In this document: piece by piece, positions 2,062-16,065 of the stretch
Layout of the letters: every line of letters begins with the position of its first letter
How positions within the stretch are numbered: position 1 is the stretch's first letter
From: a virus
Length of the DNA stretch: 20,416 nt
Virus record (IMG/VR): IMGVR_UViG_3300029309_000435
Span: 1 to 20,416 of that record
Strand: one strand, 5' to 3'
The notes under the pieces: model-generated
Database searches by the model: none
Told to the model about the DNA's origin: nothing
What the model saw: the letters and a program-made list of their open reading frames with translations, nothing else
Made by a program: the position numbers and the translations under genes

Positions 2062-4110
2062 ATGAAAAAGAAGTATAAAAGAGCAGGTACTACTTCTGAA
2101 CGTCAAGACTATCGCAAAGGTGGTCAAGTTTCTAAAGAAGGTCACGAAAGAGAAAAGCTTTTACCCGGTGGTATGCCGGCAGGCATGGGTGCTGATTTTA
2201 GTAGGCAATATGCTCAAGCTGGAACACCAAATCTTTCAAATTTAGATTTTACTAATTTAAGAATACCAGAAGTTAACATACCAGTCCAATCAACTCCTGC
2301 AGCTCAAGCACAAGCAAATACCGGAGAAACAATGTCATTAACAGAAGAACAGAAACAAAATAATAGAGAAGGTTTAGCAACAGCAGCATCAGCACAGTTG
2401 CCTGAAGCTGCTAAATTACCTGATGCTCAACAAGTATCTACTAATATTTCTCAACAGGGAACTGTTATGGATACACCTACAACTGTAGGAACAACTCAAA
2501 TAGCACAAGCTCCACAGGAACAGGCAGCTACGGTAGGAACTATACAAACTGTACCAGCTCCAACAGTTGCACCAGTAGCTACAGTACAGCCTACTCAAGT
2601 TGTACAAGCTCCAACAGTAACTGCTGCACAAACAACATTATCAGAAGATGAATTAGCAAAAACTGCAGGAGTAGATAGGATACCAACTATTGATGCTGCT
2701 CAAGTACAAATACAAGAAGGAGCATTAGCTCAACGAGTAGTAGGTCAATTAAGTCCACAATCTATTTCAACTGCAGCTCAAGCAAGCGGTACAACTTTAG
2801 CAAGAGTTACTAGAGCTAAAAAACAATTAAGAACTGCTGGATTAGATGAACAAACAATTAATCAATTAGGTGATAATCCTGAAGCATTAGAAGATAGATT
2901 AACTGATTTTACTGAAGCACAAAGAGGTGTTATTGAAGGTTTACCTGAAGAAGCATTAATAAGTAATCAGATGGATACTTTATTAAAAGGTATTGAAAAT
3001 GGTACAGTGCCTACATGGGCACAACCTGCAGTAGCAGCAGTGGAACAGATGTTAGCCCAAAGAGGTTTAGAAGCTTCTTCAGTAGGTAGAGATAATTTAA
3101 TAAATGCTATAATACAATCAGCAGTTCCATTAGCTCAAGCAAATGCTCAAGCTATTCAACAATCAGTAGCTCAAGAGAAAAATTTAATAGCTCAAGAATC
3201 TTTAGCTAATGCTCAACTACGACAACAGACAGCATTACAAAATGCACAAAACGTATTTAGTTTAAACATGGCTCAGTTTAACGCTGACCAGCAAACAGAG
3301 TTAGCTAATAGTAAATTTTTACAGACTGTATCTTTGACTAATGCTAGTACAGAGCAGCAAGGAATTATTCAAAATGCTGTATTACAATCTCAAGCAAATT
3401 TAGTAGAAGCCGATGCAAATACAAAATTAGCTATACAAAATTCTAAAGCTTTTTTACAAACAGATATGGCTAATCTTAGTGCTCAACAACAAGTAAATGT
3501 ATTACAAGCTCAACAAGAGCAGCAAAGAATGTTATCTAATCAAGCTGCTACAAATGCTGCTGCACAATTTAATGCTACTAGTGCAAATCAAACAGAGCAG
3601 TTTATGGCTAACTTAGCATCTCAAATAGCACAGTTTAATACTACACAAAGAACCGCAACTGCACAATTTAATGCTAGTCAAGAAAATGCTGCAGCAGCTA
3701 GGAATGCTGGAAGAATTGCAGATTCTATTAGATTAAATGCACAACTAGCTACACAGATTGACCAATTTAATGCTAATCAAGATTTTGCTAGGAGTCAATG
3801 GAATGCTCAAAATGCTGCTGCTGTAGAAGCAAGTAATACTCAATGGAGAAGACAAGCCAATACTTCAAACACTGCAGCACAGAATGCAGTTAACTTACAA
3901 AATGCTATGAATGCTTTTAATTTAAGTAGTCAAGCACAAGCTTTTCTATGGCAAGAACTAAGAGATAATGCTGATTATGTATTTAGAGCAGAGCAAGGTG
4001 AACGAGAAAGAATAGCTGCGTTAGTAAACACAGCAGTTTCTAGCGACCCTGCAAGTTATAAAAATACAACATCTTTAAAAAATTTAATAGGAGCAATAGT
4101 AGAGAGTTAA
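2062..4110 (+). CDS. Ala/Gln-rich repeat protein, probable virion or ejection protein
   Basis: 682 residues, very rich in Ala, Gln and Asn. The N-terminus (residues 1-50) is basic and glycine-rich (GGMPAGMGADF). Residues about 75-200 are a low-complexity Pro/Thr/Gln/Val linker, probably disordered. Residues about 240-345 look folded and helical. Residues about 350-630 are long helices with a recurring (A/D)QFN motif at residues 404, 501, 523, 534 and 567, suggesting an extended coiled coil or fibre. No enzyme motif is seen. It lies in the virion gene run ahead of the giant ejection protein, so an internal core, ejection or tail component is likely; this is inferred from position and composition. 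Confidence 0.75.
   Translation: MKKKYKRAGTTSERQDYRKGGQVSKEGHEREKLLPGGMPAGMGADFSRQYAQAGTPNLSNLDFTNLRIPEVNIPVQSTPAAQAQANTGETMSLTEEQKQNNREGLATAASAQLPEAAKLPDAQQVSTNISQQGTVMDTPTTVGTTQIAQAPQEQAATVGTIQTVPAPTVAPVATVQPTQVVQAPTVTAAQTTLSEDELAKTAGVDRIPTIDAAQVQIQEGALAQRVVGQLSPQSISTAAQASGTTLARVTRAKKQLRTAGLDEQTINQLGDNPEALEDRLTDFTEAQRGVIEGLPEEALISNQMDTLLKGIENGTVPTWAQPAVAAVEQMLAQRGLEASSVGRDNLINAIIQSAVPLAQANAQAIQQSVAQEKNLIAQESLANAQLRQQTALQNAQNVFSLNMAQFNADQQTELANSKFLQTVSLTNASTEQQGIIQNAVLQSQANLVEADANTKLAIQNSKAFLQTDMANLSAQQQVNVLQAQQEQQRMLSNQAATNAAAQFNATSANQTEQFMANLASQIAQFNTTQRTATAQFNASQENAAAARNAGRIADSIRLNAQLATQIDQFNANQDFARSQWNAQNAAAVEASNTQWRRQANTSNTAAQNAVNLQNAMNAFNLSSQAQAFLWQELRDNADYVFRAEQGERERIAALVNTAVSSDPASYKNTTSLKNLIGAIVES
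3262..3936 (+). repeat. Degenerate QFNA-type repeat region within the 682-aa virion protein
   Basis: The motif (A/D)QFN(A/T) occurs five times in about 170 residues, with related AFN and SQWN variants, embedded in Ala/Gln/Asn-rich helix. Spacing is irregular (97, 22, 11 and 33 residues), so it is a degenerate protein-level repeat rather than a tandem DNA repeat. Confidence 0.6.
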
Positions 4111-4126
4111 AATATAGGAGAATATT

Positions 4127-5278
4127 ATGGGATTATTTAGTGGAATAAAAAAAGCTTTTAAAAAAGTAACCGGAGCAGTTAAGAAAGTTGTGAAGGGAGT
4201 TGCTAAAGGAGTTAAAAAAGCTGTTAAAGGTGTAGCTAAAGTTGTTAGAAAAATAGGAAAGGGTGTAAAAAAATTAGCTAAAAATAAATATGTACGGATG
4301 GGATTAATGATAGCTGCTGCAGTTACGTTGCCTATGTTTGTACCTGCGATAGCTGCTTTACCTGCCGTAGCTGCAGGAGCTGTTACCGGTGCTATTACTG
4401 GTGGTGCTGGAGCTTTACTTTCAGGTGGAGATTTAAAAGATGTATTAAAAGGTGCTGCATTTGGTAGTGCTACAGGAGCTGCTTTTGCTAAGATTGGTGA
4501 AGCAATTAAAACTGCAAAAGCTGCTAAAGTTGGAGGAGAAAGTCTTGATTTAACTCAAGGTAAATTAGATGCTATGGGAGCAGATGTTCCTGACATCGCT
4601 GCTACTGCTACTGATGCTGCTCCAACTATTGATATTTCTGGAGACGTTGTTTCTCGTACAATACCTAAACCTGATTTTCAATTTGACCCGACTGAGGTTA
4701 GTAAGTTTTCAATAGACCCTAATATTAATCCATTAGATGGGCTATCTCCTACAGGGGTAACGACTACTGCTAATGTTAATATTCCAAGTGAAACCTTAGT
4801 TTATCCTAATCAGATAATGAAACCGGGAGCTCCAGCTCAGTCTGTAACAATTACCAAACCGGGTATTGATACTTCAGTAATTGCTCCTGCTAAAAGCGTA
4901 AAAGATTCCATAACAATGAGTCAGAACTTTGCTAAATATGGAAGCACTGAAGCTACATTAGGACAAAAAATAGCTTCTAAGTTTAAAGAAGCGTTTAGTC
5001 CAGAAAAATTAACAGATACTGCTTTAGGCGTTGCTGAAGATGCAGTTGTAGGAGGTTTAAGAAATCTGGCAGCAGGAGACCAAGAAGAAGCTTATCAACA
5101 AGGAGGTAGACAATATCAAGCAGGTGTTGTTGACCCATTATTACTTCAACAAGTACAGTATGCACATTCACAAGCATCGGTAGACTTCAATACTAGTCAT
5201 CAGAATTTACTGTATGGTACAGCAGATATGTCTCATTACACGCCTTTACAAACTCAAGAAATACTTAGGATATCATAA
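4127..5278 (+). CDS. Virion protein with cationic amphipathic N-terminus and hydrophobic Gly/Ala segments
   Basis: 383 residues. Residues 6-54 are a striking lysine-rich stretch in which KK or KG alternates with Val/Ala/Phe (for example KKVVKGVAKGVKK), resembling a membrane-active amphipathic helix. Residues about 58-130 are hydrophobic and Gly/Ala-rich (MGLMIAAAVTLPMFVPAIAALPAVAAGAVTG as two adjacent spans, then GGAGALLSGG), plausible membrane-inserting helices. The rest is polar, with a Gln/Tyr-rich stretch near residues 320-360. A ribosome binding site (TAGGAG) precedes the start. Basic plus membrane-inserting character and a position among virion genes suggest a DNA-ejection protein that helps cross the host envelope. 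This is inference; no family was recognised with certainty. Confidence 0.75.
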   Translation: MGLFSGIKKAFKKVTGAVKKVVKGVAKGVKKAVKGVAKVVRKIGKGVKKLAKNKYVRMGLMIAAAVTLPMFVPAIAALPAVAAGAVTGAITGGAGALLSGGDLKDVLKGAAFGSATGAAFAKIGEAIKTAKAAKVGGESLDLTQGKLDAMGADVPDIAATATDAAPTIDISGDVVSRTIPKPDFQFDPTEVSKFSIDPNINPLDGLSPTGVTTTANVNIPSETLVYPNQIMKPGAPAQSVTITKPGIDTSVIAPAKSVKDSITMSQNFAKYGSTEATLGQKIASKFKEAFSPEKLTDTALGVAEDAVVGGLRNLAAGDQEEAYQQGGRQYQAGVVDPLLLQQVQYAHSQASVDFNTSHQNLLYGTADMSHYTPLQTQEILRIS

Positions 5279-6018
5279 TGGCTAAAAAACAAATAAAACC
5301 AGTATCACAATTTGTTACTAGAAATTTATCAGAATCTATTTCAAGAACAGTAGATGAAGCTGCTGAGTCTGGATTAGATTTTGAAGAATTTATAAGAGAG
5401 CTAGATAAAGAACCTGTAAATAAAATAGCTGAAAATAAAGAAAATCAACAAGATTTAGATGAGTTGGTATCAATGGTTGGTAAGGGTGTATCAATTCCCG
5501 GACAGTCTTTAACTAATTCTCCAGACCAAAAATATCCTTGGGAAACTCCTCCTAAACATAGTAACCCTAGAGAAGCACTTACAGCTATAACAACAGAGTT
5601 ATTAGAAACTGAAAAGGTAGGGTTCTTAATAGAAAGTTTAGCAGAAGGAATGGCAGTTACAGATATTACAACTTCTATTTTATTTGCTAAGTTTTATCAA
5701 GGAGAAATAAATCCCGATGTTATGTTATTATTAATTGAGCCAGTTATGTACACTATAATGTCTATTGGTTCAGAAGCAGGTATTGAATATAACATTGAGC
5801 CCGGAGATGTAAATGAAAGTTTTGATGAGCCGGATGAAGAATTTGAAAAAGGAAAGTTGTCAGAATTTAATAAAGCTATTGGTAAAGTTGGTGCAGAAGC
5901 TAAACCTAATATAAATAATAATATTAAAAGTGAAATACTACCTAAAAGTTTATTAGAAAAAATAGAAGACAAAGGTCCAGAAATTAGAAGTTTATTAAAT
6001 AAACAAGAAGAGGAATAA
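5278..6018 (+). CDS. Probable virion structural protein, conserved-looking, function unknown
   Basis: 246 residues, starting with TAATG overlap with the previous stop, so translation is probably coupled. The middle holds an IPGQSLTNSPDQKYPWETPP segment (about residues 73-94), then helices with a mildly hydrophobic stretch near residues 145-165. I associate this kind of proline-rich YPWE segment followed by a helical domain with structural proteins of marine phages, but I cannot name the family. The C-terminus is acidic and charged. No catalytic motif or signal peptide is seen. Position suggests a core or ejection role. Confidence 0.75.
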   Translation: MAKKQIKPVSQFVTRNLSESISRTVDEAAESGLDFEEFIRELDKEPVNKIAENKENQQDLDELVSMVGKGVSIPGQSLTNSPDQKYPWETPPKHSNPREALTAITTELLETEKVGFLIESLAEGMAVTDITTSILFAKFYQGEINPDVMLLLIEPVMYTIMSIGSEAGIEYNIEPGDVNESFDEPDEEFEKGKLSEFNKAIGKVGAEAKPNINNNIKSEILPKSLLEKIEDKGPEIRSLLNKQEEE

Positions 6019-6019
6019 C

Positions 6020-7432
6020 ATGGCAGAAGAATTTGACTATTTAAAAGATTCTAAATTTGGTAAGTTAGCTACTAATATTCTTGATAAAAGAGAAAAAGAT
6101 AATGATAGATTACTACCAACTGGAGGAAATTTATTAGCGTTGTTCGCAGACGTTGCTTCTAAATATATAACTAAAAAGAATAGAGATTTACAACAAGAAC
6201 AAGCTACAAATATTGAAACTTTAACAAGGCAATATAATGATGTTATCGGCACGAGAAAAGATTTTTTTAATAGTAGTGCTATAAAAAAACAGAGAGAAGA
6301 TTATCAGCTTTGGAAAAATCCAGAAACAAAACAGAAAGCAAGATTAGCAAAAGCTATAGAATATTTTAATCAAGATAAAGATATGATAGAAGAGTTTGGA
6401 AGTATGAATCCTTATAATGAATATTTAAAACTTCCTAAAAATTCTAAAAACGCTGAGTTAATGAATGATGCACTAGAGCTTCTAATGGGTCAAGCAGATG
6501 TATATTTTGAAAGTATAAATGACGATGCTATAGTCGTGCCTACACAAGCAGAATATTTAAGAGAAGTTAAACAAGCTTTTGAAGCTGCACTAAAGGAAGC
6601 AAGGAATGACCCTACTAAAAAAACTTTTTTACGAAAACAATTTTTAAAAGCATTTGGAAGAGATGAAAAAGGTAATCCTAGATTTGGTTTAGTCAATCAA
6701 GATGAGTTAAAAAATCTAAGAGTAAATGCTGAAGAGGCTGCTGGTATTGGTAGAGATAATCCTTTAGCAATGGTAAGTGATTTAGATATAGAGCAAAGAG
6801 AAGCAGATAAAGCTAGAGTTTTTGAACGACCTGATTTAAGTGAGTTTGATTTTCTTACTCAAAAACCAAAAAGTTCTAAACCTAATCCTGTTGATAGACG
6901 TGTTTTAATAGATGCTAGTTCTGACGTTAGGAGTCTTTTTAATGACCAATACAAATTTGATATTGTAAATAATGATGGAGCTAAGAAAAATTTGTCTTTC
7001 TATTCTGTATACAAAGGTCTTAAAAACTATAATGGTAGTAATCAAATGCAAGGTCAATATAACCAAACGAATCTTATATATGATGTATTAACCCTATCAA
7101 AAACTGCTAGAGCAGAATTTGAAAAAACAAATTACGATGGTGATGTAAGAAGTGCTGAATCATTTTTAGTACCTGCGATACAAGAAGTATTTGATAGAAT
7201 GTCTAACGGACTGCCTTCTTTAGGCTTTGAAAATACTATGGAGGTAATAGCACCTGATGAAATGGTTGAGTTTACTAGCAATGGTACAGACTATAAAATG
7301 TCAATACAAGAAGTTGCTGAGACATTTATTGGTAAATCCAATGAAGAAAAAAACGACTGGATTGATAATATAGAATTTGAACCGAAGTATAAATTTGTAT
7401 TTGATGTGTTAAGACGTAGGGATTATGAATAA
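6020..7432 (+). CDS. Probable internal virion/ejection protein, 470 aa
   Basis: 470 residues, highly charged and mostly helical, starting two bases after the preceding stop. It holds a basic N-terminal helix region (residues about 5-60), a central helical domain with alternating Lys and Glu/Asp, and a C-terminal domain ending FEPKYKFVFDVLRRRDYE. No signal peptide, membrane segment or catalytic motif is seen. It sits immediately before the giant 1695-residue protein and overlaps its start, a position like that of the middle core protein gene (gp15) of T7-like phages. Homology to gp15 is not visible by eye; only the order supports the analogy. Confidence 0.75.
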   Translation: MAEEFDYLKDSKFGKLATNILDKREKDNDRLLPTGGNLLALFADVASKYITKKNRDLQQEQATNIETLTRQYNDVIGTRKDFFNSSAIKKQREDYQLWKNPETKQKARLAKAIEYFNQDKDMIEEFGSMNPYNEYLKLPKNSKNAELMNDALELLMGQADVYFESINDDAIVVPTQAEYLREVKQAFEAALKEARNDPTKKTFLRKQFLKAFGRDEKGNPRFGLVNQDELKNLRVNAEEAAGIGRDNPLAMVSDLDIEQREADKARVFERPDLSEFDFLTQKPKSSKPNPVDRRVLIDASSDVRSLFNDQYKFDIVNNDGAKKNLSFYSVYKGLKNYNGSNQMQGQYNQTNLIYDVLTLSKTARAEFEKTNYDGDVRSAESFLVPAIQEVFDRMSNGLPSLGFENTMEVIAPDEMVEFTSNGTDYKMSIQEVAETFIGKSNEEKNDWIDNIEFEPKYKFVFDVLRRRDYE

Positions 7433-10400
7433 TGTCTAATAGGGAAAAATCAATACAAGAGCTGATTGCAGAAAAAGCAAGTACTCCTAAAACAACAGAA
7501 ATTTCTTTAGAGTCTATACCTGAAACAAACTTAACTGAAGAAAAAGTTGTAGAAGGTTTAGAAGAGAAAGATGACATACATATAGAACTAGACAAGAAAA
7601 ATAGACTTCTAGATGATGACATTTCTGAATTTAGAAAATTTAATTATGGTGCAGAACAAGAAACTCATATCCTAGGAAATTTATGGAGACAAGGAAAAGC
7701 TCTTTATAGAAGTGCAACTTCTGATGAGTTGACTTTAACTTACTCAGAAGCTGCTCGTCAAATAGAAGCTGAAAGACAAGAAGCTATTTTTGAAAAATTT
7801 CCAGAGTTTAGAGGTAAAGAAGAAGATGCTGCAGTAATCGCTGGAAGAGTAGCTACAGGATTTCTTGACCCAGTTGCTCTTGCAGTTCCTTGGACTAGAA
7901 TAGCTCAAGCAGGTAGAATAGCTACCATTACAGCAGGGGGAGCTTTTTCTGCTGGAGATATAGCACTTAGAGAATATTCTTTGTATGGAAGGGTAAGTCC
8001 TTATAGTGTAGGACTTGCTGCAGGTTTAGGTGCTGGAGCAACAACTATTAGTTCCGTAATAGCAGATAAAATTAATAAGGCAATTCCCAGTGGTAAATTA
8101 ATTACTGTTGATGAAACTGGTAAGCCAGTAATTACTAACATGTCTAGGATTGATGCTGAAGATACGTTAGGAGATTTAAGTCCAGAAATAAAAAGAGGTT
8201 TGGAATTAGTTTCAAATGATGTATACAAAGTTTCTGGTCCATACATTGCTAGGTTTTCAAAAGATTTAGAAAGTTTAGGAGTTAAATATAATAAAAGATT
8301 AATAGCTAGAAATGAATTAAAAAAGCATCAAAAACAATTAGAACAATTAGAAAGAATTGGCTTAGATAAACAAGTAGAATTATTTAAAGGTGGTCAAGTT
8401 GAGCAGGTTAAAAAGATAATAGATGCTCAGAAAAAATTAGTAGAACAGTATCAAAAAGAAATTGATGATATTCTACTAAAACAAATGCCGGAAGATTTAG
8501 GCGTTGTTGGTTTTGAATCTTTTAAAAGAGCTTATCAAGCAGGATTATTAAAAGGAAGGATTGGTGAACAACTAACACGAGCTTTTGTACAAGAAGCAGT
8601 TAGACCGTTAATAGGAGCAGTTGGTGGCTTTGCTGCTGGAAGTGCTATGGGTGCTAATGATAATTCTGCGTATATGTCAGCAGCTATAGGAGCTGGTATA
8701 ACGATGGGAATTATATCTAAAAGATTAGAGCTTGATAAAGGTATACCTAAAGAAGTAGTATCTTTCTTTAAAAAGGAAGGAGAAAAAGTTTTTAAGCGTA
8801 ATTGGAGAACTAATTTAAATTTAACTTTATTTGGTGCTGGAACTCACGCTTCTTATATGCAATCTCGTAGCTCAGTTTTAAGAGACTTTAGTGAAGATTT
8901 ATATGGATATAGAGGAAATGCTTACGATTTAGGTAAGCCTATGAGACCAAACATAGAAGAGTTAAGGTACACGAGTAATGATTATTTTAGAAAGCAAGTA
9001 TTTGACCTTTTACAAGATGTTGACGATGACACTATTTTAACTGCTGGTAGAATAATACAACAGCAAGATGCTCCTTCTAATATGAAGTATAACTTTATAG
9101 AAAAAGGAGATTTAGATAATAAACAAGCTGTAGAATTAGCTAATAAATTTATAGGTATTAGAAAAGAAATAAAAGACTATGCAGAAAAAGCAGGTCTTAC
9201 TTTTACTGAATTAGATTCTTATGGATTAACGCAGATACTAGATTCTGAGGAAGTTAAGAAAATGGGATTTGCGAATGCTCAAAAAATAATAGCTCAAGCT
9301 TTTATAATACAAAGTAAAAACCTAAGTACTAAAGATTCAAAAGTAAAAGTATTGACAAAAAAAGAAGCTAATAGATTAGCAATAAAATATTTAAATCATT
9401 CTGATAATGTTAGAAGACAAGAGGTATTAGACGAAGTTAGTATAACTGATGACACTTTTAAACTTATTAAGAATGATGGTAAAAAAATTAAAAAAGGAGA
9501 AAGTCTTTTACAAGCTTCTAAATATTTAGCAAACGAAAGAACTTTAGTAGACCCTGAAGCTAGAGCATTTGCTAAAAATCTTTTTATTCAAGACCCAGAG
9601 TTTACGACACTAAGACTTTCAGAGAATATTGTACCCGTTGCAGAGTTTGCTAGGCGTTATGGAGAAAAAGGTCAAGGACTAAGAAAAGTTTTTGCTGATA
9701 TTAAAAAGTATTACAGTCAGTTTGGTAATGTAGATACTAATTCTTCTTTACAAAAATTAGTTAGAGAAGATTTTGAACAAGTTAGAAATAGTGTAAATGC
9801 TTACTTTGGTGTCTATGATTTAAGAGGTGGTATAAGAGGTAGTGATGCATTTAAAAGTGTAATGTTAACTTTACAAACTTTATTATCAACTACAAAACTA
9901 ACTAAAGTTGCTTTACCTTCTTTAGGAGATTTACTACAAGTAATACAAAACAGTGGCTTCAAGGCAGCAGCTAATTCTGCATATTTACAAATGAAGCAAA
10001 GAGGTTCAAAAGCAATAAAACCTTCTGCTGCTTTAGCTCAAAGAAGCCCGACTGATGAAACCGGTATAATTTTTAAAGAGCCTATTTTTGGTAGAAAATT
10101 TGGAAATAGAAAATATAGAAATACTTTAGAAAGAGAGCTTAGTGATTTTTCACAAGCAGCTACTACTCGTTATCAACAAGGATTAATAAACTTTCAAGGA
10201 AGATTTTTTGAGATAGTTCAATTAGGTAGAGTAACTAGATTTGCTAGAGAATTTGCTTATGATGCTGGAGCATTTAGAATTTTTGATTTAGGTAAAAAAG
10301 CTGCTACAGGTAACTTAAGTAAAGCACAAATAAGAGAAATAAATCTTTTAGGTTTTAAACCTGAAGAAATAAAATTTTTAAGTAAGTTTAAAAGTATGGA

Positions 10401-12519
10401 TGATGCTTTTAAAAATCCTGAAGGTAAAATAGTTATTGACATAGCTGGAAGAAGGTCTGCAGATAGAGATGCATTAATACCACAGATAGGTAATAGAAGA
10501 TTATTTTCTCAATCTAGAGACCCTATGATGAAATTTGCTGGAAGTTTTTTATCTTGGGCACAAGCAAAAGCTACTCAAACTAACTCATTGGTTAGAAGAA
10601 TAGAGGATGGAGATGCTAAATTAGCTTTAATGATGTTAGCATCTTTGCCTATATATGGAGCAGTTAGAAGTTTACAAATATCTATGAACTCAAGTGAAGA
10701 ATTTAGAGAGGAGCATCCTAACTTTTTATCTGGATTTGAAAACGAAGGAGACCTTAGAAAGTTTATTGCAGACTCACTAATTTTTAGTGGGCAAACTTTA
10801 CCATTTAGTATAGATAAATTAGTTAACTTTGTGAAGTATAGTAATTCAGATATAACTGAATCTATCTATCCTGTACTAGGATTTCTAAACGATTTATTTG
10901 GAGCAGTTAGAACTGGAATTAAAGGTAAACCTTTTACCGGTATTAATAGATTAGTTGAAACTGTAGTTCCTTTTGGTAAGGATTTTACTCGTTCTGAAAA
11001 AGTTGGAGAGGCTCTAGGTCTTCCCGATACTATCGAAGGGGAAGCTAAATTTAGGGATTCAGATAGAGCTCTAAGACTAAACTTTGTAACGGGTGGAGAA
11101 GTTGAAGGAGAAGAAGTTCCATTTACTCAAGAAAATCCTGCAGATAGAATTAATCCATTGACAGGAGAACCATACAGTCAAACTTCAAAAGGTGTCTTAG
11201 CTACTTTAAAAGATAGACAAGAAGATAGAATTCCTAAAACCTATGGTGGTTTGTTAAATAATTTACAAAGACGTAAAAAGTTTGCGTTAGGTGCTACTGT
11301 TGCTGGACTACTTACTAGAGAAATACTTGACCAATTACCTAACAAAGTTTATCGTGGAGGCTCAAGTAGAATTATTACCAGTAAAGAAGGAACTTCATCA
11401 GTGTTTGCAACTCCAGATAAGATAATGGCTGACTCTTTTGCTGACCCTAAATCTGTTGCGAAGTCAATGGTAACAGATGGTGAGTCTTTAAAAATGAAAG
11501 ACAAACTTAATCTACATGAAATTGATATAAGTGGTGCTAAAAATCCTTATGTACTAGACCAACCTAGTGAGGCAATGAAAATTAGAATAGAGAGAGCTTT
11601 GATGAAGGAGGGGAATAGTGATGCTAGAAATGATGCGTTAAATTCTTTACTAAATCCAGAAGATTTTGATATAAGAGTAGCCTCCTCTGATTTTTATAGG
11701 GTAAACAGAGAGGTTGGTAAGTTTTTAAAAGACGAAGGCTATGATATAGCTTTAGATAGTAGAACTTTGCAAAAAGGTTTTAATAATAATCCAGAAGCAG
11801 AGTTATTTATTTTAGGTAAGTTTCCTGTAAAAGCTATACCTAGACTAAAAGTTAAAGGTCAGGAAATTGAAGGTGGAGATTTAGTTACCTTTAAAGATGT
11901 AGCTAAAAAAGTAGACGAGCCACCTACAGTAAAAGTTCCAACATGGTTTAAAGAAACTCAAGTTAAAACTGATGTTAACCCTGCTGATGCTCAAAAAACT
12001 CAAGTAGGTATAACCTCTGGAACTTATAAAAAAGTAGTGCCTTTATTAAAGACAGGTAATACTTTAGACTTTGGTGCAGGTTTAGGTAAAGGTGCTAAAA
12101 TATTAAAAGCTGATAGCTATGAGCCGTTTCCTAAAAAAGGTTTTGAACCTACCTTTACAGAAACATCTGCAATACCTAATAGTTCCTATGATAATGTAGT
12201 CAGTTTAAACGTTCTCAATGTTGTTAAACCTGATGTTAGAAATGATATAGTTTTAGATATAGGTAGAATTTTAAAACCAGAAGGTATTGCTATTATAACT
12301 ACCAGAGGCTCTGACATTTTTGGTAATAAAAATAATATTACTAAAGGTGTCTTGTCAAACTTAGAAGAAGGTGCTATAATAACAAGTAGTGGCACTTATC
12401 AAAAAGGTTTTACTAATCCAGAGTTAAAAGAATATGTTAGTGGCTTACTAGGCGATATGTTTGAAGTAGAAAACATTACTGGTCTAGGTAAGGCAGGTAT
12501 AAAAGTTACAAAATTATAA
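7432..12519 (+). CDS. Giant internal virion (ejection) protein with C-terminal ART-like and methyltransferase-like domains
   Basis: 1695 residues, TAATG overlap with the previous gene. The N-terminus is charged; residues about 135-210 and 390-430 are Gly/Ala-rich hydrophobic segments; residues 290-350 are coiled coil. Residues 800-1180 include a conserved-looking core around FAGSFLSWAQAKATQTNSL (1035-1053), typical of large phage ejection proteins. The size and position match the giant last core protein (gp16-like) of podoviruses. The C-terminus differs: residues about 1305-1470 look like an ADP-ribosyltransferase fold (VYRGG, SSVFATP, ADSFADP, then AELFILGKFPVKAI), and residues about 1530-1640 resemble a class I methyltransferase (LDFGAGLGKG, then SYDNVVSLNVLNVV and LKPEGIAIITTRG). 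No lytic transglycosylase motif was seen. The ejection role is inferred; the two C-terminal folds are motif-level calls. Confidence 0.85.
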   Translation: MSNREKSIQELIAEKASTPKTTEISLESIPETNLTEEKVVEGLEEKDDIHIELDKKNRLLDDDISEFRKFNYGAEQETHILGNLWRQGKALYRSATSDELTLTYSEAARQIEAERQEAIFEKFPEFRGKEEDAAVIAGRVATGFLDPVALAVPWTRIAQAGRIATITAGGAFSAGDIALREYSLYGRVSPYSVGLAAGLGAGATTISSVIADKINKAIPSGKLITVDETGKPVITNMSRIDAEDTLGDLSPEIKRGLELVSNDVYKVSGPYIARFSKDLESLGVKYNKRLIARNELKKHQKQLEQLERIGLDKQVELFKGGQVEQVKKIIDAQKKLVEQYQKEIDDILLKQMPEDLGVVGFESFKRAYQAGLLKGRIGEQLTRAFVQEAVRPLIGAVGGFAAGSAMGANDNSAYMSAAIGAGITMGIISKRLELDKGIPKEVVSFFKKEGEKVFKRNWRTNLNLTLFGAGTHASYMQSRSSVLRDFSEDLYGYRGNAYDLGKPMRPNIEELRYTSNDYFRKQVFDLLQDVDDDTILTAGRIIQQQDAPSNMKYNFIEKGDLDNKQAVELANKFIGIRKEIKDYAEKAGLTFTELDSYGLTQILDSEEVKKMGFANAQKIIAQAFIIQSKNLSTKDSKVKVLTKKEANRLAIKYLNHSDNVRRQEVLDEVSITDDTFKLIKNDGKKIKKGESLLQASKYLANERTLVDPEARAFAKNLFIQDPEFTTLRLSENIVPVAEFARRYGEKGQGLRKVFADIKKYYSQFGNVDTNSSLQKLVREDFEQVRNSVNAYFGVYDLRGGIRGSDAFKSVMLTLQTLLSTTKLTKVALPSLGDLLQVIQNSGFKAAANSAYLQMKQRGSKAIKPSAALAQRSPTDETGIIFKEPIFGRKFGNRKYRNTLERELSDFSQAATTRYQQGLINFQGRFFEIVQLGRVTRFAREFAYDAGAFRIFDLGKKAATGNLSKAQIREINLLGFKPEEIKFLSKFKSMDDAFKNPEGKIVIDIAGRRSADRDALIPQIGNRRLFSQSRDPMMKFAGSFLSWAQAKATQTNSLVRRIEDGDAKLALMMLASLPIYGAVRSLQISMNSSEEFREEHPNFLSGFENEGDLRKFIADSLIFSGQTLPFSIDKLVNFVKYSNSDITESIYPVLGFLNDLFGAVRTGIKGKPFTGINRLVETVVPFGKDFTRSEKVGEALGLPDTIEGEAKFRDSDRALRLNFVTGGEVEGEEVPFTQENPADRINPLTGEPYSQTSKGVLATLKDRQEDRIPKTYGGLLNNLQRRKKFALGATVAGLLTREILDQLPNKVYRGGSSRIITSKEGTSSVFATPDKIMADSFADPKSVAKSMVTDGESLKMKDKLNLHEIDISGAKNPYVLDQPSEAMKIRIERALMKEGNSDARNDALNSLLNPEDFDIRVASSDFYRVNREVGKFLKDEGYDIALDSRTLQKGFNNNPEAELFILGKFPVKAIPRLKVKGQEIEGGDLVTFKDVAKKVDEPPTVKVPTWFKETQVKTDVNPADAQKTQVGITSGTYKKVVPLLKTGNTLDFGAGLGKGAKILKADSYEPFPKKGFEPTFTETSAIPNSSYDNVVSLNVLNVVKPDVRNDIVLDIGRILKPEGIAIITTRGSDIFGNKNNITKGVLSNLEEGAIITSSGTYQKGFTNPELKEYVSGLLGDMFEVENITGLGKAGIKVTKL
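11344..11841 (+). other. ADP-ribosyltransferase-like domain in the ejection protein
   Basis: Residues about 1305-1470. The order of motifs is VYRGG (candidate NAD-binding Arg at 1308), SSVFATPDKIMADSFA (Ser-Thr-Phe-like strand and helix), and a closing strand AELFILGKFPVKAI. This matches the layout of ART-like domains in phage polyvalent proteins (Y-H/R-G, then F-T-P with an A-x-x-F/Y helix, then a final V/F-F-x-x-x-x-I-K strand). The catalytic Glu or Gln of the third motif is uncertain; Glu1455 or Glu1457 is a candidate. Confidence 0.5.
12019..12516 (+). other. Class I SAM-methyltransferase-like domain in the ejection protein
   Basis: Residues about 1530-1695. Motif I is LDFGAGLGKGAKIL (1545-1558), an acidic post-strand residue follows in SYEP (1562-1565), and the SYDNVVSLNVLNVV strand (1585-1598) is followed by a helix and LKPEGIAIITTRG (1614-1626), the usual pattern of a small Rossmann methyltransferase. 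No DPPY/NPPY-type motif for DNA amino-methylation is seen, so the substrate cannot be guessed. Confidence 0.65.
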
Positions 12520-12525
12520 TAAATA

Positions 12526-12891
12526 ATGTATAAATACTTTACAGAAGATGAACTAAAATGCAAACACACCGGTCTATGTGATATGGACTGGGCATTTATG
12601 CAAACAGTTGAAAGGATTAGAGAACGTTGTGGTTTCCCTTTCAAAGTAAGCAGTGCTTATCGTTCTCCAGAGCATCCCATAGAAGCTAAAAAGAGCACCC
12701 CCGGAGCTCATTCTTCTGGTAAAGCTATGGATATACTTGTCAACGGAGAACAAGCCATGACACTCGTTAAAATAGCTCTGGAAGAGGGTATTAATAGGAT
12801 AGGAGTTGCACAAAAAGGAGACCGTGCTTCGAGATTTATTCATCTAGACATGGATAACTCACGAGCCACTCCTCGTATTTGGAGCTACTAA
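12526..12891 (+). CDS. M15 family peptidase, probable endolysin
   Basis: 121 residues matching the short peptidase M15 (D-Ala-D-Ala carboxypeptidase/L-Ala-D-Glu endopeptidase) fold. The zinc-binding pattern is visible: SAYRSPEH (residues 43-50), GAHSSGKAMDI with His62 and Asp69, and FIHLDMD with His106. Such proteins cut peptide crosslinks in peptidoglycan and are common phage endolysins. No signal peptide or membrane anchor is present, so export would need a holin. It follows the ejection gene by six bases without an obvious ribosome binding site, and the next gene starts in its stop codon. With the holin downstream it forms the lysis cassette. Confidence 0.9.
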   Translation: MYKYFTEDELKCKHTGLCDMDWAFMQTVERIRERCGFPFKVSSAYRSPEHPIEAKKSTPGAHSSGKAMDILVNGEQAMTLVKIALEEGINRIGVAQKGDRASRFIHLDMDNSRATPRIWSY

Positions 12892-13145
12892 TGTTAATAT
12901 TATACAGAGAAAGAGATTTAGACGAAGCATATAGAATAGATTGTAAAGCTAGAACCAAAGGTAACGAGCCTTGGATAAAGCGAGAAGATTTTAGAAACAT
13001 CTATGAAGCTTTACTAGATACATACTTTACAAATTCTGTAGAAAAAAAACTAGAGCAAAAAGAACAAGACGTTGCTGAATATGTTATTGAGCAAGTCAAC
13101 AAAGCTCTAGAAAGAACTATAGACTTTGACCCTGAAATAAAATAA
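12891..13145 (+). CDS. Small charged phage protein, unknown function
   Basis: The start at 12891 (84 aa) overlaps the peptidase stop as TAATG and has a GGAG eight bases upstream, so I prefer it to the in-frame ATG at 12879. The protein is helical and strongly charged, begins MLILYRERDLDEAYRIDCKA, and has no membrane segment, so it is not an obvious spanin or holin. Two Cys/Trp-containing patches (IDCKA, EPWIK) may be part of a small fold. It lies between the endolysin and the MscS-like gene; a role in lysis timing is possible but unproven. Confidence 0.7.
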   Translation: MLILYRERDLDEAYRIDCKARTKGNEPWIKREDFRNIYEALLDTYFTNSVEKKLEQKEQDVAEYVIEQVNKALERTIDFDPEIK

Positions 13146-13146
13146 T

Positions 13147-13506
13147 ATGGACTTAGAACAATACTATGTCGAGGCTATCGGCTTTATAATAACTTTACTA
13201 ACTGGTCTAGCTTTGAAAGACTGGTCTATGTCTTTTGTAAAAGGTGCTTCGTTTAGACTTAGTAACTCTTTTAAAGAAGGAGACAAAGTTATTCTCGATG
13301 GACAAGTAGCAATGATAATTAAAATAGGGTTTACCCAAACTGTATTCGGGGTATACTCAGATGATGGATATACATGGAGGTATATTCCCAATCAAAAGAT
13401 AGATTCTATAAAACTTGAAAAAGTTGTAGACCAAGATTTACATGCTGACTCAGCTATAGAGAAGGCAGAAAAACTTAGAAAAATATTGGAGGCAAAAGAT
13501 GTTTGA
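13147..13506 (+). CDS. MscS-like mini membrane protein (pore helix plus beta domain)
   Basis: 119 residues. Residues about 9-33 form a membrane segment ending GLALKDWSMSF, followed by GASFRLSNSFKEGDKVILDG (33-52), an IGFTQTVFG strand (60-68) and a YIPNQKI turn (79-85). This is the order in MscS channels: TM3 with a GLAL-x-(D/G) pattern, the P/S-F-x-x-G-(D/E)-x-V beta-domain entry, then the IPN-x-K-(I/L) hallmark. TM1, TM2 and the large cytoplasmic alpha-beta vestibule are missing; full MscS is about 286 residues. It sits in the lysis cassette between endolysin and holin, and its end overlaps the holin start by eight bases. It could form or gate an inner-membrane pore, act as an antiholin, or answer osmotic change. 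The match is by eye but strong. Confidence 0.75.
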   Translation: MDLEQYYVEAIGFIITLLTGLALKDWSMSFVKGASFRLSNSFKEGDKVILDGQVAMIIKIGFTQTVFGVYSDDGYTWRYIPNQKIDSIKLEKVVDQDLHADSAIEKAEKLRKILEAKDV

Positions 13507-13861
13507 TAAATTAATTAAACCAGTAAGTGATATAGTTGGTAAGTTTGTAAAAGACAAAGACTTACAAGCACAACTAGACCACGAACTAAAAACATTATTC
13601 CATCAGGCTAATTTAGCACAAGTAGAAATAAATAAACTAGAAGCAAAAGGCAACTGGTTTCAATCTTCATGGCGACCACTAACAGGTTATGTTTGTGTTG
13701 CCGGATTAGCTATTAACTTTTTAATCTCACCAATAGCAAAAGGTTTTGGTATAGATATACCACAAGCTGATGCCGGTGTAATGATGCCACTTCTAACAGG
13801 TATGTTAGGAATTGCAGGAATGAGAAGTTACGATAAACTAAAGAAAACAGATTCAAAATAA
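13499..13861 (+). CDS. 3-TM holin (GTA-type holin family)
   Basis: 120 residues. An N-terminal amphipathic, charged region (residues 1-55) precedes SSWRPLTGYVCVAGLAINFL (about 55-74), a second hydrophobic stretch (ISPIAKGFGI) and a third (VMMPLLTGMLGIAGMRSYDK, about 92-112). The S-x-W-R-P-x-T-G motif and the closing G-x-A-G-x-R-S-Y-x-K are typical of the Holin_3TMs family found in phages and gene transfer agents. A GGAGG ribosome binding site lies about seven bases before the ATG. It would permeabilise the inner membrane at the end of infection and release the M15 endolysin. It is the last clear + strand gene. Confidence 0.85.
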   Translation: MFDKLIKPVSDIVGKFVKDKDLQAQLDHELKTLFHQANLAQVEINKLEAKGNWFQSSWRPLTGYVCVAGLAINFLISPIAKGFGIDIPQADAGVMMPLLTGMLGIAGMRSYDKLKKTDSK

Positions 13862-13991
13862 TTTTAACCAATGCTTATGGAGGTAAAAAAAGCTAGTGAA
13901 AAATGGCAATGGCGAGGATTTCTGTGTCCTCTGTATCCTATTCTGGATAACAATGACAGTAATGTATGCTTCAATTACAGCAATCTAAGAA
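13862..13991. other. Convergent junction between + and - arms
   Basis: This 130-base stretch separates the + strand lysis genes from the - strand replication/RNR genes. Transcription from both sides converges here, so a two-way terminator is expected, but I see only weak hairpins (a five-base GAGGA/TCCTC stem near 13913-13930 and a four-base ATCC/GGAT stem near 13936-13950) without flanking T-runs. A possible short membrane-peptide gene lies inside. Confidence 0.6.
13902..13988 (+). CDS. Possible 28-aa single-span membrane peptide
   Basis: A short frame starting MAMARIFCVLCILFWITMT reads as one hydrophobic span with two Cys, directly after the holin gene. Such tiny membrane peptides are common in phage lysis regions. 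Against it, the only good ribosome binding site nearby (GGAGG at 13879-13883) is about 18 bases from this ATG, and no homologue is known to me. It could be chance. Confidence 0.3.
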   Translation, partial: NGNGEDFCVLCILFWITMTVMYASITAI

Positions 13992-14213
13992 CTACTTTAT
14001 AAAATCTAGTTCACTCTGAAAATAATTATGCAAGGTGGCAAATTTCTTTTGCCCCGCCTGTAGGATAGTTTTAACTATTTCATTCTCATCTCTAGTTTTA
14101 AATACCTTATCTACCTCTTCTACTGGTAGCATACTTAACTCTGTAACAATATCATTGTTAGCAGTAAGCACTACTTTAAAACTTATTAGATTAGCTTCTT
14201 TCTTCTTCGCCAT
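13992..14213 (-). CDS. Small protein downstream of nrdB, unknown function
   Basis: 73 residues, N-terminally basic (MAKKKEANLISFKVV), with one alpha-beta-like fold and no membrane segment or catalytic motif. It begins inside the last codons of nrdB, overlapping by 23 bases, and a GGAGGA ribosome binding site five bases before the ATG supports the start. It is the last gene of the - strand operon, so it is probably co-expressed with ribonucleotide reductase. Nothing shows its role. Confidence 0.75.
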   Translation of the reverse strand: MAKKKEANLISFKVVLTANNDIVTELSMLPVEEVDKVFKTRDENEIVKTILQAGQKKFATLHNYFQSELDFIK

Positions 14214-15189
14214 TATTCTCCTCCATAGATGCGAAAGTTATCTGGTCTTGTCTTCCTCTTAATCCTGCCTTCATGTATGAAGTAGCACGACCCTCAAAGA
14301 AGTTTTGATGTTCAACTCCCATAACTTCATCTAACCAACCTAACGGATTCTCCCTCTGGTCAAAGTTTGTTTTTAGTCCTAGTTGTAGCAGTCTCCTATC
14401 TGCTATATATCTATTATATGCATACATATCTTTCTTAGTTAGTCCTTGTATGTCTCCCATATCAAACACTAAGTCTAAGAATTTATCTTCAAGTTCTACC
14501 ATGTGTCTACATATATCGTATAATTCTTTTTTAAATTTGTCAGTCCATATTTCTAAGTTCTCTTGAATAAACTCTCTAAAAAGTTTGGTCATAGCTTCAA
14601 CGTGCATTGACTCATCTCTGATAGAATAGGTAACTATCTGACCCATACCTTTCATTCTACCGAACCTTGGAAAGTTTAACAAGATTGCAAAGCTACTAAA
14701 TAGTTGTAGTCCTTCGGTAAAAGCCGAATAGACTGCTAAAGTTTTTGCAATACTTTCTTTATCTCTTTTAGTTGTTTTTAAATTACTAATGTACTCGTGT
14801 TTATTAGACATTTCTTCGTATTCAGAAAAAGCTTTGTACTCTATCTCAGGCATACCGACAGTGTCTAATAATAAACTATAAGCATGTTGATGAATAGATT
14901 CCATGTTAGCAAATGAACCCATCATCATTCTTGCTTCTGGTTTTTTAAATATTCTCATGTATCTATCTATGTAACCAGAGCCAACATCTACATCAGACTG
15001 TGTAAACAACCTGAATATCTGTGTTAATAAATTCTTTTCATTGTCTGATAACTCTTGCCAATCTTTAACATCTGTATGTAAAGGTACAGACTCAGGCATC
15101 CAGTGCATTTGATTTTGTAATACATAGTAATCAAACATCCACGGGTTATCAAATGGTTTGTAATAATCTCTTGTTCCTAACAGACTCAT
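14191..15189 (-). CDS. nrdB: Ribonucleotide reductase class I beta subunit (R2)
   Basis: 332 residues. It houses the di-iron/tyrosyl radical cofactor that starts reduction of ribonucleotides by NrdA. All expected ligands are readable by spacing: Asp66, Glu97 and His100 (in NMESIHQHAY), Glu159 (in FTEG), Glu193 and His196 (in RDESMHVE), and the radical Tyr104, seven residues after Glu97. This excludes the metal-free class Ie and radical-Tyr-less class Ic types by motif. The start overlaps the preceding stop as TAATG with an AGGAGGAG ribosome binding site. The phage uses the pair to enlarge the dNTP pool during replication. nrdA and nrdB are separated by three inserted small genes, one a cytochrome c. 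Confidence 0.97.
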   Translation of the reverse strand: MSLLGTRDYYKPFDNPWMFDYYVLQNQMHWMPESVPLHTDVKDWQELSDNEKNLLTQIFRLFTQSDVDVGSGYIDRYMRIFKKPEARMMMGSFANMESIHQHAYSLLLDTVGMPEIEYKAFSEYEEMSNKHEYISNLKTTKRDKESIAKTLAVYSAFTEGLQLFSSFAILLNFPRFGRMKGMGQIVTYSIRDESMHVEAMTKLFREFIQENLEIWTDKFKKELYDICRHMVELEDKFLDLVFDMGDIQGLTKKDMYAYNRYIADRRLLQLGLKTNFDQRENPLGWLDEVMGVEHQNFFEGRATSYMKAGLRGRQDQITFASMEENNGEEERS

Positions 15190-15411: not shown

Positions 15412-15636
15412 TCATGGTTTAAGAAATTCTGGTTTGTCAAAAAAAATAAACATTGTTATAAAAGGTAATATACCTATACCGATTACAAAAATAGATGGTA
15501 ATATTACTGCCCAAAACATAGGATTCTTTGTCATAAAATCTAGGTCTTTATTATTCATACCTTTCTTTTTATCTTCTTCAGTGTAATCTGGATACGATAA
15601 AGAATCTTCAAATCTTTTGACATGTTTTGGTTTCAT
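15412..15636 (-). CDS. Single-span membrane protein co-translated with the cytochrome c
   Basis: 74 residues. A polar, charged N-terminus (residues 1-38, Lys-rich) is followed by one hydrophobic span at about residues 41-66 (FWAVILPSIFVIGIGILPFI onward) and a short tail FFDKPEFLKP. The positive-inside rule puts the N-terminus in the cytoplasm and the tail outside. Its ATG overlaps the cytochrome stop in an ATGA junction, so the two are probably translated together and may act together, for instance as a membrane dock for the cytochrome or as a small oxidase-type subunit. I do not recognise a family. Confidence 0.75.
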   Translation of the reverse strand: MKPKHVKRFEDSLSYPDYTEEDKKKGMNNKDLDFMTKNPMFWAVILPSIFVIGIGILPFITMFIFFDKPEFLKP

Positions 15637-16064
15637 AAAGTATCAATGTAAGCTTGTAAATTTTCCATATCTTCAAGAGTTAGGTTAGCAGCTTGACCCC
15701 ACATGAGAGCAGATTGTGCACCCCTAGTCTCTCCATTTTTATATTGCATTAACATTTTTACAATAGATGTACTTCCAGATAATTTTGGTCCAATACCTCC
15801 TTCTCCTTTCATACCATGACACATATTACAATTAACATATATCTTAGCACCTTTATCAGCAGGTGTTTCTGTTTGCATTGCAACTCTTTTTGCTTCTAGT
15901 TGTTCTATAAATGTACCATACTTTGCAGTATATTCTTCATAACATTCTCCCCAACAACCATGTACATCTCCATAACCAGACACGTCTGCGTTTATAATAG
16001 TTGTATAAAGTATTCCACCGATACCTAAAACTCCAACTAATAACATTGCTATACTGTGTTTCAT
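15633..16064 (-). CDS. Mono-haem c-type cytochrome, membrane-targeted
   Basis: 143 residues from the ATG at 16064, chosen because GAGGGA sits four bases upstream and the ATG follows the nrdA stop; an in-frame GTG at 16076 inside nrdA is less likely. Residues 5-25 are a hydrophobic signal or anchor (IAMLLVGVLGIGGILYTTI, possible cut after INA). Residues 70-143 are a class I cytochrome c: CNMCH at 79-83 (Cys79 and Cys82 bind haem, His83 is axial), GIGPKLSG, then a probable axial Met121 in ALMWGQAANLTLEDMENL and a final helix. Two extra cysteines (37 and 41) may form a disulfide. It needs host periplasmic haem ligation. It would carry electrons in respiration; the redox partner is unknown. Confidence 0.92.
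   Translation of the reverse strand: MKHSIAMLLVGVLGIGGILYTTIINADVSGYGDVHGCWGECYEEYTAKYGTFIEQLEAKRVAMQTETPADKGAKIYVNCNMCHGMKGEGGIGPKLSGSTSIVKMLMQYKNGETRGAQSALMWGQAANLTLEDMENLQAYIDTL
15816..15830 (-). other. Haem c attachment motif CNMCH
   Basis: Read on the - strand, these five codons give Cys-Asn-Met-Cys-His, the CxxCH signature for covalent haem c attachment. It is the only CxxCH in the protein, so one haem is expected. Confidence 0.95.
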
Positions 16065-16065
16065 A

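What the first reader, a model, noticed from the sequence alone, without database searches (positions are those of the whole stretch)
11344..11841. ADP-ribosyltransferase-like domain on a putative ejected virion protein
Motif order near residues 1305-1470 of the giant protein resembles ART-like domains of phage polyvalent proteins. If active and injected with the DNA, it could modify host targets at the very start of infection, as T4 Alt does.
Basis: inference. Interest (0 to 1): 0.72.

Follow-up and report, generated by a model that had tools for sequence, protein, structure and literature searches.

The report
ADP-ribosyltransferase cassette on phage ejection protein
A giant protein of a probable SAR11-infecting ocean phage, most likely carried in the particle and shot into the cell, ends in a domain with the fold of enzymes that tag molecules with ADP-ribose, plugged into a slot where related phages carry other enzymes, so the phage may begin reprogramming or disarming its host as soon as it injects its DNA.

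Summary
Window 11326-11880 (aa 1299-1483 of the 1695-aa ORF 7432-12519) encodes an ART-fold domain that no Pfam, PHROG or NCBIfam model recognises. I built a family of nine distinct sequences. Its profile links to sister domains that hit Pfam ART-PolyVal. An AlphaFold2 model (pLDDT 78) matches almost only ART enzymes in the PDB (AcrIF11, RES, diphtheria toxin, ParT, KptA), and its best Foldseek hit is the resolved C-terminal part of the cyanophage A-4L pre-ejectosome protein. R1308 (His in two distant members), S1323 (same clade only) and E1457 (invariant) are the likely active-site positions; S1322 and E1455 are not conserved. Pfam's ART-PolyVal site is H-Y-D, so R-S/F-E here is a variant. 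The domain lies in a variable slot after a conserved linker: the nearest core relatives have nothing there, others carry lysozymes, methyltransferases or other ARTs; 18 of 99 non-redundant tails (not a random sample) are ART by profile. In one near relative the methyltransferase after the ART is replaced by another domain. Catalysis, target and ejection are inferred, not shown. I rate it a new variant of a known kind (phage polyvalent-protein ARTs).

The parts
7432..12519 (+). Giant ORF, 1695 aa, putative ejection (internal virion) protein and polyvalent carrier of the ART domain
   Evidence: Intact ORF. Relatives over the core: HTVC103P gp52, HTVC104P gp54, HTVC115P gp40 and many IMG/VR contigs
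9568..10977 (+). Conserved core, aa 713-1182, shared by all relatives
   Evidence: Alignment A3; 148 relatives found, 80 kept, in viral contigs
11143..11175 (+). Conserved linker motif DRINPLTGEPY (aa 1238-1248), entry point of the variable C-terminal slot
   Evidence: Seen in core relatives; pattern has 1 match in the window, 0 expected; used to fetch more tails
11326..11880 (+). ART-fold domain, aa 1299-1483 (modelled region; ordered roughly aa 1302-1475)
   Evidence: Alignment A7, profile link to ART-PolyVal-like domains, AlphaFold2 pLDDT 78.4 pTM 0.76, structure matches
11353..11355 (+). Codon of R1308, strand 1 active-site position (His in L316, L317)
   Evidence: strand 7-12 of the model
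11398..11400 (+). Codon of S1323, just before strand 2; F1325 (11404-11406) is Tyr in L316, L317
   Evidence: strand 26-29 of the model
11800..11802 (+). Codon of E1457, invariant, just before strand 160-162: likely catalytic Glu
11968..12516 (+). Class I methyltransferase-like domain, aa 1513-1695, second cassette of the slot
   Evidence: Methyltransf_23 E 2.1e-4 on the isolated domain, below Pfam's cut-off; 36-55% identical to domains in CRP-738, HTVC103P/104P, Bigswole, MJing1
11928..12502 (+). Stretch replaced by an unrelated domain (Pfam Phage_L5_gp82-like) in relative L002, with about 92% identical DNA on both sides
   Evidence: blastn segments 10845-11927 and 12503-15174; L002 tail
2062..7432 (+). 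Four ORFs (2062-4110, 4127-5278, 5278-6018, 6020-7432) upstream, in the position of T7-type internal virion genes; candidate co-ejected proteins
   Evidence: Gene order; assignment is inference, no informative family hit
12526..12891 (+). Endolysin, next gene downstream; places the giant ORF at the end of the late structural operon
   Evidence: phrog_894 endolysin E 3.1e-29

Best explanation
The C-terminal region of a giant podovirus internal virion protein carries an ADP-ribosyltransferase domain of a previously unmodelled family related to ART-PolyVal. The protein is made late, packaged in the head core, and ejected ahead of or with the DNA to build the envelope-spanning conduit. Its C-terminal cassettes (ART, then a methyltransferase) thereby reach the host cell. 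There the ART binds NAD+ (strand-1 R1308, strand-2 region S1323/F1325, strand-5 E1457) and transfers ADP-ribose to a host macromolecule at the start of infection. A protein of transcription, translation or defence is the likeliest target. Shown here: homologous family, fold, conserved positions, purifying selection, cassette swapping. Inferred: packaging, ejection, catalysis, target.
For: Family of nine with E1457, Y1307, G1309, G1310 and S1312 invariant. Profile link to Pfam ART-PolyVal-hitting sisters, with shuffle controls. AlphaFold2 model pLDDT 78. Of 49 PDB rows listed by VIA-align, all but one belong by name to known ART-fold enzymes, led by the phage ART AcrIF11 at Z 6.6. The exception, 9k3a_B, is the A-4L pre-ejectosome protein, matched over residues 1419-1610, where the sequence reads LYHGT...GSGTYFS...TLVINPD. 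dN/dS is about 0.25-0.33 in close pairs. The slot in other members holds lysozyme or transglycosylase domains of internal-virion type, and 18 of 99 non-redundant tails are ART by profile. Polyvalent proteins are proposed to be injected and ARTs are their commonest modifying domain (PMC5512222, PMC9503650).
Against: No direct family-model hit for the window sequence. VIA Z-scores are middling (below 8). The strand-1/strand-2 pair differs from the H-Y-D of ART-PolyVal: in the window clade His is replaced by Arg and the Tyr position by Phe. No virion proteomics. No activity data. Nearest core relatives lack the domain, so it is dispensable.
Confidence: 0.55

Rival explanations
1. ART fold, but catalytically dead or re-purposed: a binding or structural module (for example gripping the ejectosome, DNA or a nucleotide) kept without transferase activity.
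For: In the window clade the His and Tyr of ART-PolyVal are replaced (R1308, F1325); E1455 of an E-x-E is not conserved. The A-4L pre-ejectosome protein has a comparable part ordered inside the particle. In some sister tails the final strand lacks a clear Glu, e.g. L281 GSVLFL.
Against: R plus Ser plus Glu is a working ART site in other clades (Alt, PMC5512222). E1457 is invariant in nine sequences and Y-[RH]-G-G is strictly kept.
Confidence: 0.2
2. Active enzyme of the ART fold, but its substrate is nucleic acid or a small molecule (DarT- or KptA-like, or an NADase that counters NAD-based defence) rather than a host protein.
For: KptA/Tpt1 and RES (NADase) structures are among the matches; the partner domain is a methyltransferase.
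Against: The family profile links to ART-PolyVal, proposed to modify proteins; no nucleic-acid-specific feature seen.
Confidence: 0.18
3. Active ART, but not an ejected effector: the giant protein acts or is processed in the late-infected producer cell, or the C-terminus remains in the particle, and any modification helps assembly or excludes competing phages.
For: Late-operon position; no proteomic proof of ejection.
Against: Internal-virion-type lysozymes occupy the same slot in relatives; solved precedent of a podovirus pre-ejectosome protein with a matching part; polyvalent ARTs are predicted to be injected.
Confidence: 0.1
4. Not an ART: chance motif resemblance.
For: No library model hits the single sequence.
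Against: Fold matches, profile links with controls and conserved positions.
Confidence: 0.04

Closest known systems
ART-PolyVal (PF18760), ARTs of phage and conjugative-element polyvalent proteins (Tox-ART-HYD2 clade; Iyer et al. 2017, PMC5512222)
   Same: Position at the C-terminus of a giant, probably virion-carried protein next to other effector domains; profile homology through sister tails; same strand order
   Different: Window family is not detected by the Pfam model; active-site positions are R / S-F / E (or H / Y / E in two members) instead of H / Y / D
T4 Alt (Alt/VIP2 clade, R-S-E ARTs)
   Same: Strategy (virion-carried ART); Arg on strand 1 and Glu on strand 5
   Different: No sequence or structural match to Alt found; separate injected protein in T4, here one cassette of a 1695-aa structural protein; kinship measured is to ART-PolyVal
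AcrIF11, phage ADP-ribosyltransferase anti-CRISPR (6kyf)
   Same: Best structural match by VIA-align, Z 6.6 over 119 residues
   Different: Small free-standing protein; 18% identity; target specificity unrelated as far as known
Anabaena cyanophage A-4L gp27, pre-ejectosome protein (9k3a chain B)
   Same: Giant podovirus ejection protein with an apparent C-terminal ART-like part at residues 1419-1610
   Different: No detectable sequence similarity to the ART family profile
Pelagibacter phage HTVC103P gp52, HTVC104P gp54, HTVC115P gp40
   Same: Homologous core of the giant protein (26-34% identity in the aligned core); HTVC103P and 104P share the methyltransferase
   Different: No ART of this family; HTVC103P and 104P carry a lysozyme after the methyltransferase (Pfam for HTVC103P); HTVC115P carries an unrelated tail

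Membership tests
ADP-ribosyltransferase superfamily (fold) | Split-beta ART core with active-site residues on strands 1, 2 and 5 | tested here: met
   AlphaFold2 model pLDDT 78.4, strands 7-12, 26-29, 160-162 carry or adjoin R1308, S1323/F1325, E1457; PDB second look is almost all ART enzymes, though Z is 6.6 or less
ADP-ribosyltransferase superfamily (fold) | Catalytic acidic residue on strand 5 conserved in the family | tested here: met
   E1457 9 of 9
ADP-ribosyltransferase superfamily (activity) | NAD+-dependent ADP-ribose transfer | not testable with these tools
   Needs biochemistry
ART-PolyVal PF18760 | Reaches Pfam's curated score | tested here: not met
   No hit up to E 10 for the window domain; sister L281 30.7 bits against a cut-off of 31.2
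ART-PolyVal PF18760 | H (strand 1), Y (strand 2), D (strand 5) active site | tested here: not met
   Window clade has R, S/F, E; L316 and L317 have H, Y, E (definition)
ART-PolyVal PF18760 | Homology to bona fide ART-PolyVal domains | tested here: met
   hhalign A7 against A9 E 7.5e-8, probability 94.5; hmmsearch 4.9e-8 to L281; reverse search with A9 is weak, 0.0094 for L208 and above 0.3 for the window
T4 Alt / VIP2 clade | R-S-E triad | tested here: inconclusive
   R1308, S1323 and E1457 sit at matching strand positions, but geometry could not be measured
T4 Alt / VIP2 clade | Sequence or structure kinship to Alt | tested here: inconclusive
   No Alt/VIP2 entry among the matches, which does not exclude it
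Phage polyvalent protein | Several effector domains fused in one long polypeptide | tested here: met
   ART plus methyltransferase; L313 and L314 add a second ART-PolyVal-like domain
Phage polyvalent protein | Packaged in the virion and injected | not testable with these tools
   Context only; no proteomics found

The most novel reading that the evidence does not exclude
The C-terminus of this marine podovirus ejection-protein family is a dedicated effector slot. Phages exchange enzyme cassettes there while keeping the conduit core and linker, and in one clade an H-Y-type polyvalent ART has changed to an R-S-E-type site, giving a new class of virion-delivered ART in likely SAR11 phages.
Probability: 0.45. 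Interest if true: 0.72.

Novelty: new variant of a known kind. Interest (0 to 1): 0.52.

Why it matters
Pelagiphages are among the most abundant viruses, and most of their effectors are unnamed. A virion-carried ART would mean host takeover starts before any phage gene is expressed. The linker motif DRxxPxTGxPY gives a simple handle to harvest the cassettes of this slot from marine viromes. The coexistence of H-Y-E and R-S/F-E members in one small family makes a change of ART active-site type directly testable.

Tried and rejected
Single-sequence searches (Pfam, PHROGs, NCBIfam, PDB sequences, phages, plasmids, genome contigs) found nothing for the window domain. AlphaFold2 with two near-identical sequences failed, pLDDT 33. 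Searching by single-sequence core found one locus; the four-sequence core alignment found 148 relatives. Weak Pfam hits FhaA_N (window domain) and SNaCT12 (L208) were treated as chance. PDB sequence hits of the family profile (cyperene synthase, CpsB) were treated as chance, E 0.036 or worse. Alt/VIP2 structures were not among the listed fold matches; absence is not evidence. BFVD matches were weak, E 0.009 or worse, though two of the first nine are named PolyVal ART. A-4L gp27 shows no sequence similarity to the family profile. The paper on the A-4L pre-ejectosome is not held, so whether its authors name an ART is unknown to me. KF356199, fetched as a guess for A-4L, was another phage.

Full report
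WHAT WAS CHECKED. The window is a 20,416-base virus record. The finding lies in ORF 7432-12519 (+), 1695 aa, intact. Residues 1305-1470 contain the stated motifs at the stated numbers: R1308, S1322, S1323, E1455, E1457.

THE PROTEIN. The core (aa 713-1182) is homologous to Pelagibacter phage HTVC103P gp52, HTVC104P gp54 and HTVC115P gp40. 148 IMG/VR stretches encode relatives, of which 80 were kept. That relatives infect SAR11 and that G+C here is about 33% suggest a SAR11 host (inference; PMC8528129 on HTVC103P-type phages). The ORF follows four ORFs in the position of T7-type internal virion genes and precedes an endolysin and a holin. A glycine-rich, membrane-like stretch lies near aa 390-430 (weak Rick_17kDa hit).

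A VARIABLE C-TERMINAL SLOT. After the core, relatives share a linker ending in DR-x-(D/N)-x-x-TG-x-PY, then diverge completely. The closest core relatives (59% identical; L013-L016, L023) end 80-86 residues after the core with no enzyme. Among 99 non-redundant tails Pfam and PHROGs find lysozymes, SLT and glucosaminidase domains, an L5-gp82-like domain, methyltransferases, HNH and ART-PolyVal, including PHROGs named 'internal virion lysozyme motif' and 'internal virion protein with endolysin domain'. By my two profiles 18 of the 99 are ART. In relative L002 the ART is 98% identical in DNA, but the following methyltransferase is replaced by the gp82-like domain between flanks of about 92% identity: a clean cassette exchange. 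Other homologues show ART-gp82 (L277/L312, L311) and ART-methyltransferase-second ART-PolyVal-like (L285/L313, L314).

THE FAMILY. Linker-derived tails and one profile scan gave nine distinct sequences (A7). Invariant residues include Y1307, G1309, G1310, S1312, D1365, G1436, D1442 and E1457. R1308 is Arg in seven and His in two; S1323 is Ser in the same seven; F1325 is Tyr in the two His members; S1322 and E1455 vary. dN/dS in close pairs is about 0.25-0.33 by NG86, which indicates selection for function but not which function.

LINK TO KNOWN ARTs. The A7 profile finds the tails of L281, L183, L125 and L098 at 26.2, 22.0, 20.3 and 15.8 bits, against a maximum of 8.9 bits in 2,000 shuffles of such tails and 4.0 on 134 reversed tails. 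Three of those four are close to each other, so this is about two independent links. L281 hits Pfam ART-PolyVal at 6.3e-7, just under the cut-off; L054, the same contig as L183, hits it at 9.6e-5. hhalign of A7 with that group gives E 7.5e-8 and probability 94.5. The reverse search is weak, so the kinship is distant.

STRUCTURE. With A7 the AlphaFold2 model reaches pLDDT 78.4, pTM 0.76; with two sequences it had failed. Foldseek's best PDB match is 9k3a chain B, cyanophage A-4L pre-ejectosome, probability 0.96 but E only 1.7e-3. VIA-align ranks AcrIF11 first (Z 6.6, 119 residues, 4.3 A), then 9k3a_B, a RES toxin and diphtheria-toxin-type enzymes, with ParT, MbcT, KptA/Tpt1, exotoxin A, cholix and NatT below; by name all listed rows but 9k3a_B are ART-fold enzymes. 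Single Z values are middling, and the rows were pre-selected by Foldseek; the agreement of many unrelated ART families is what counts. I identified 9k3a_B as A-4L gp27, 1717 aa. Residues 1419-1610 begin at LYHGT and read as an ART by eye; no sequence similarity to our family was found. If that reading is right, a solved podovirus pre-ejectosome already contains an ART-like part.

MECHANISM. Most likely the giant protein is packaged in the head core, ejected to form part of the conduit, and its C-terminal ART modifies a host macromolecule with ADP-ribose at the start of infection, as proposed for polyvalent-protein ARTs (PMC5512222) and shown for T4 Alt (as cited there). Shown here: family, fold, conserved positions, selection, cassette exchange. 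Inferred: packaging, ejection, catalysis, target. The H to R and Y to F (with a conserved Ser two residues before) changes leave open that the window clade is inactive (about one in five).

NOVELTY. ARTs in polyvalent proteins are known, and ART-PolyVal has a Pfam model. New here are a family that no library recognises, a different active-site pattern with H-type members in the same small family, and its place in an exchangeable slot of a marine podovirus protein. I therefore call it a new variant of a known kind.

Noticed in passing
window 15633-16076 (-): A c-type cytochrome gene (Pfam PF00034 E 4.5e-7; CNMCH haem motif at 15816-15830) with a signal-like N-terminus sits between nrdB and nrdA; the near relative L002 has nrdB and nrdA adjacent without it. 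Possible auxiliary gene.
   Followed up: partly
window 11968-12516 (+): The methyltransferase cassette is widely mobile among phages: in CRP-738 gp40 and MJing1 near terminase/portal genes, in Bixzunavirus near the major head protein, in HTVC103P/104P and LS06-2018-MD07.
   Followed up: partly
L285 (L313) and L314, C-terminal end: A second, ART-PolyVal-like domain (HATKADFDKFDLNYMGTGEGAQVYSEGIYF...) follows the methyltransferase, so one virion protein may carry two ARTs; an ART-PolyVal next to the same methyltransferase also occurs in Rhodobacteraceae phage LS06-2018-MD07, L007.
   Followed up: partly
L319:20116-25269 (-), Anabaena phage A-4L gp27 residues 1419-1610: The solved pre-ejectosome protein 9k3a_B appears to contain a ParB-like stretch followed by an ART-like part (LYHGT...GSGTYFS...GVDALTD...TLVINPD); annotated only as tail protein.
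   Followed up: partly
window 13147-13506 (+): A 119-aa ORF before the GTA-type holin (13499-13861, PF11351) reads like the beta domain of an MscS-type channel; no Pfam hit.
   Followed up: no
L002:1021-2064, L067, L069, L073, L118, L151, L165 tails: A recurrent domain with the motif ADEVIQ(I/V)GPLVLAK, related to mycobacteriophage L5 gp82 (PF25735), is the commonest Pfam-recognised cassette in the slot (9 of 99 tails); function unknown.
   Followed up: partly
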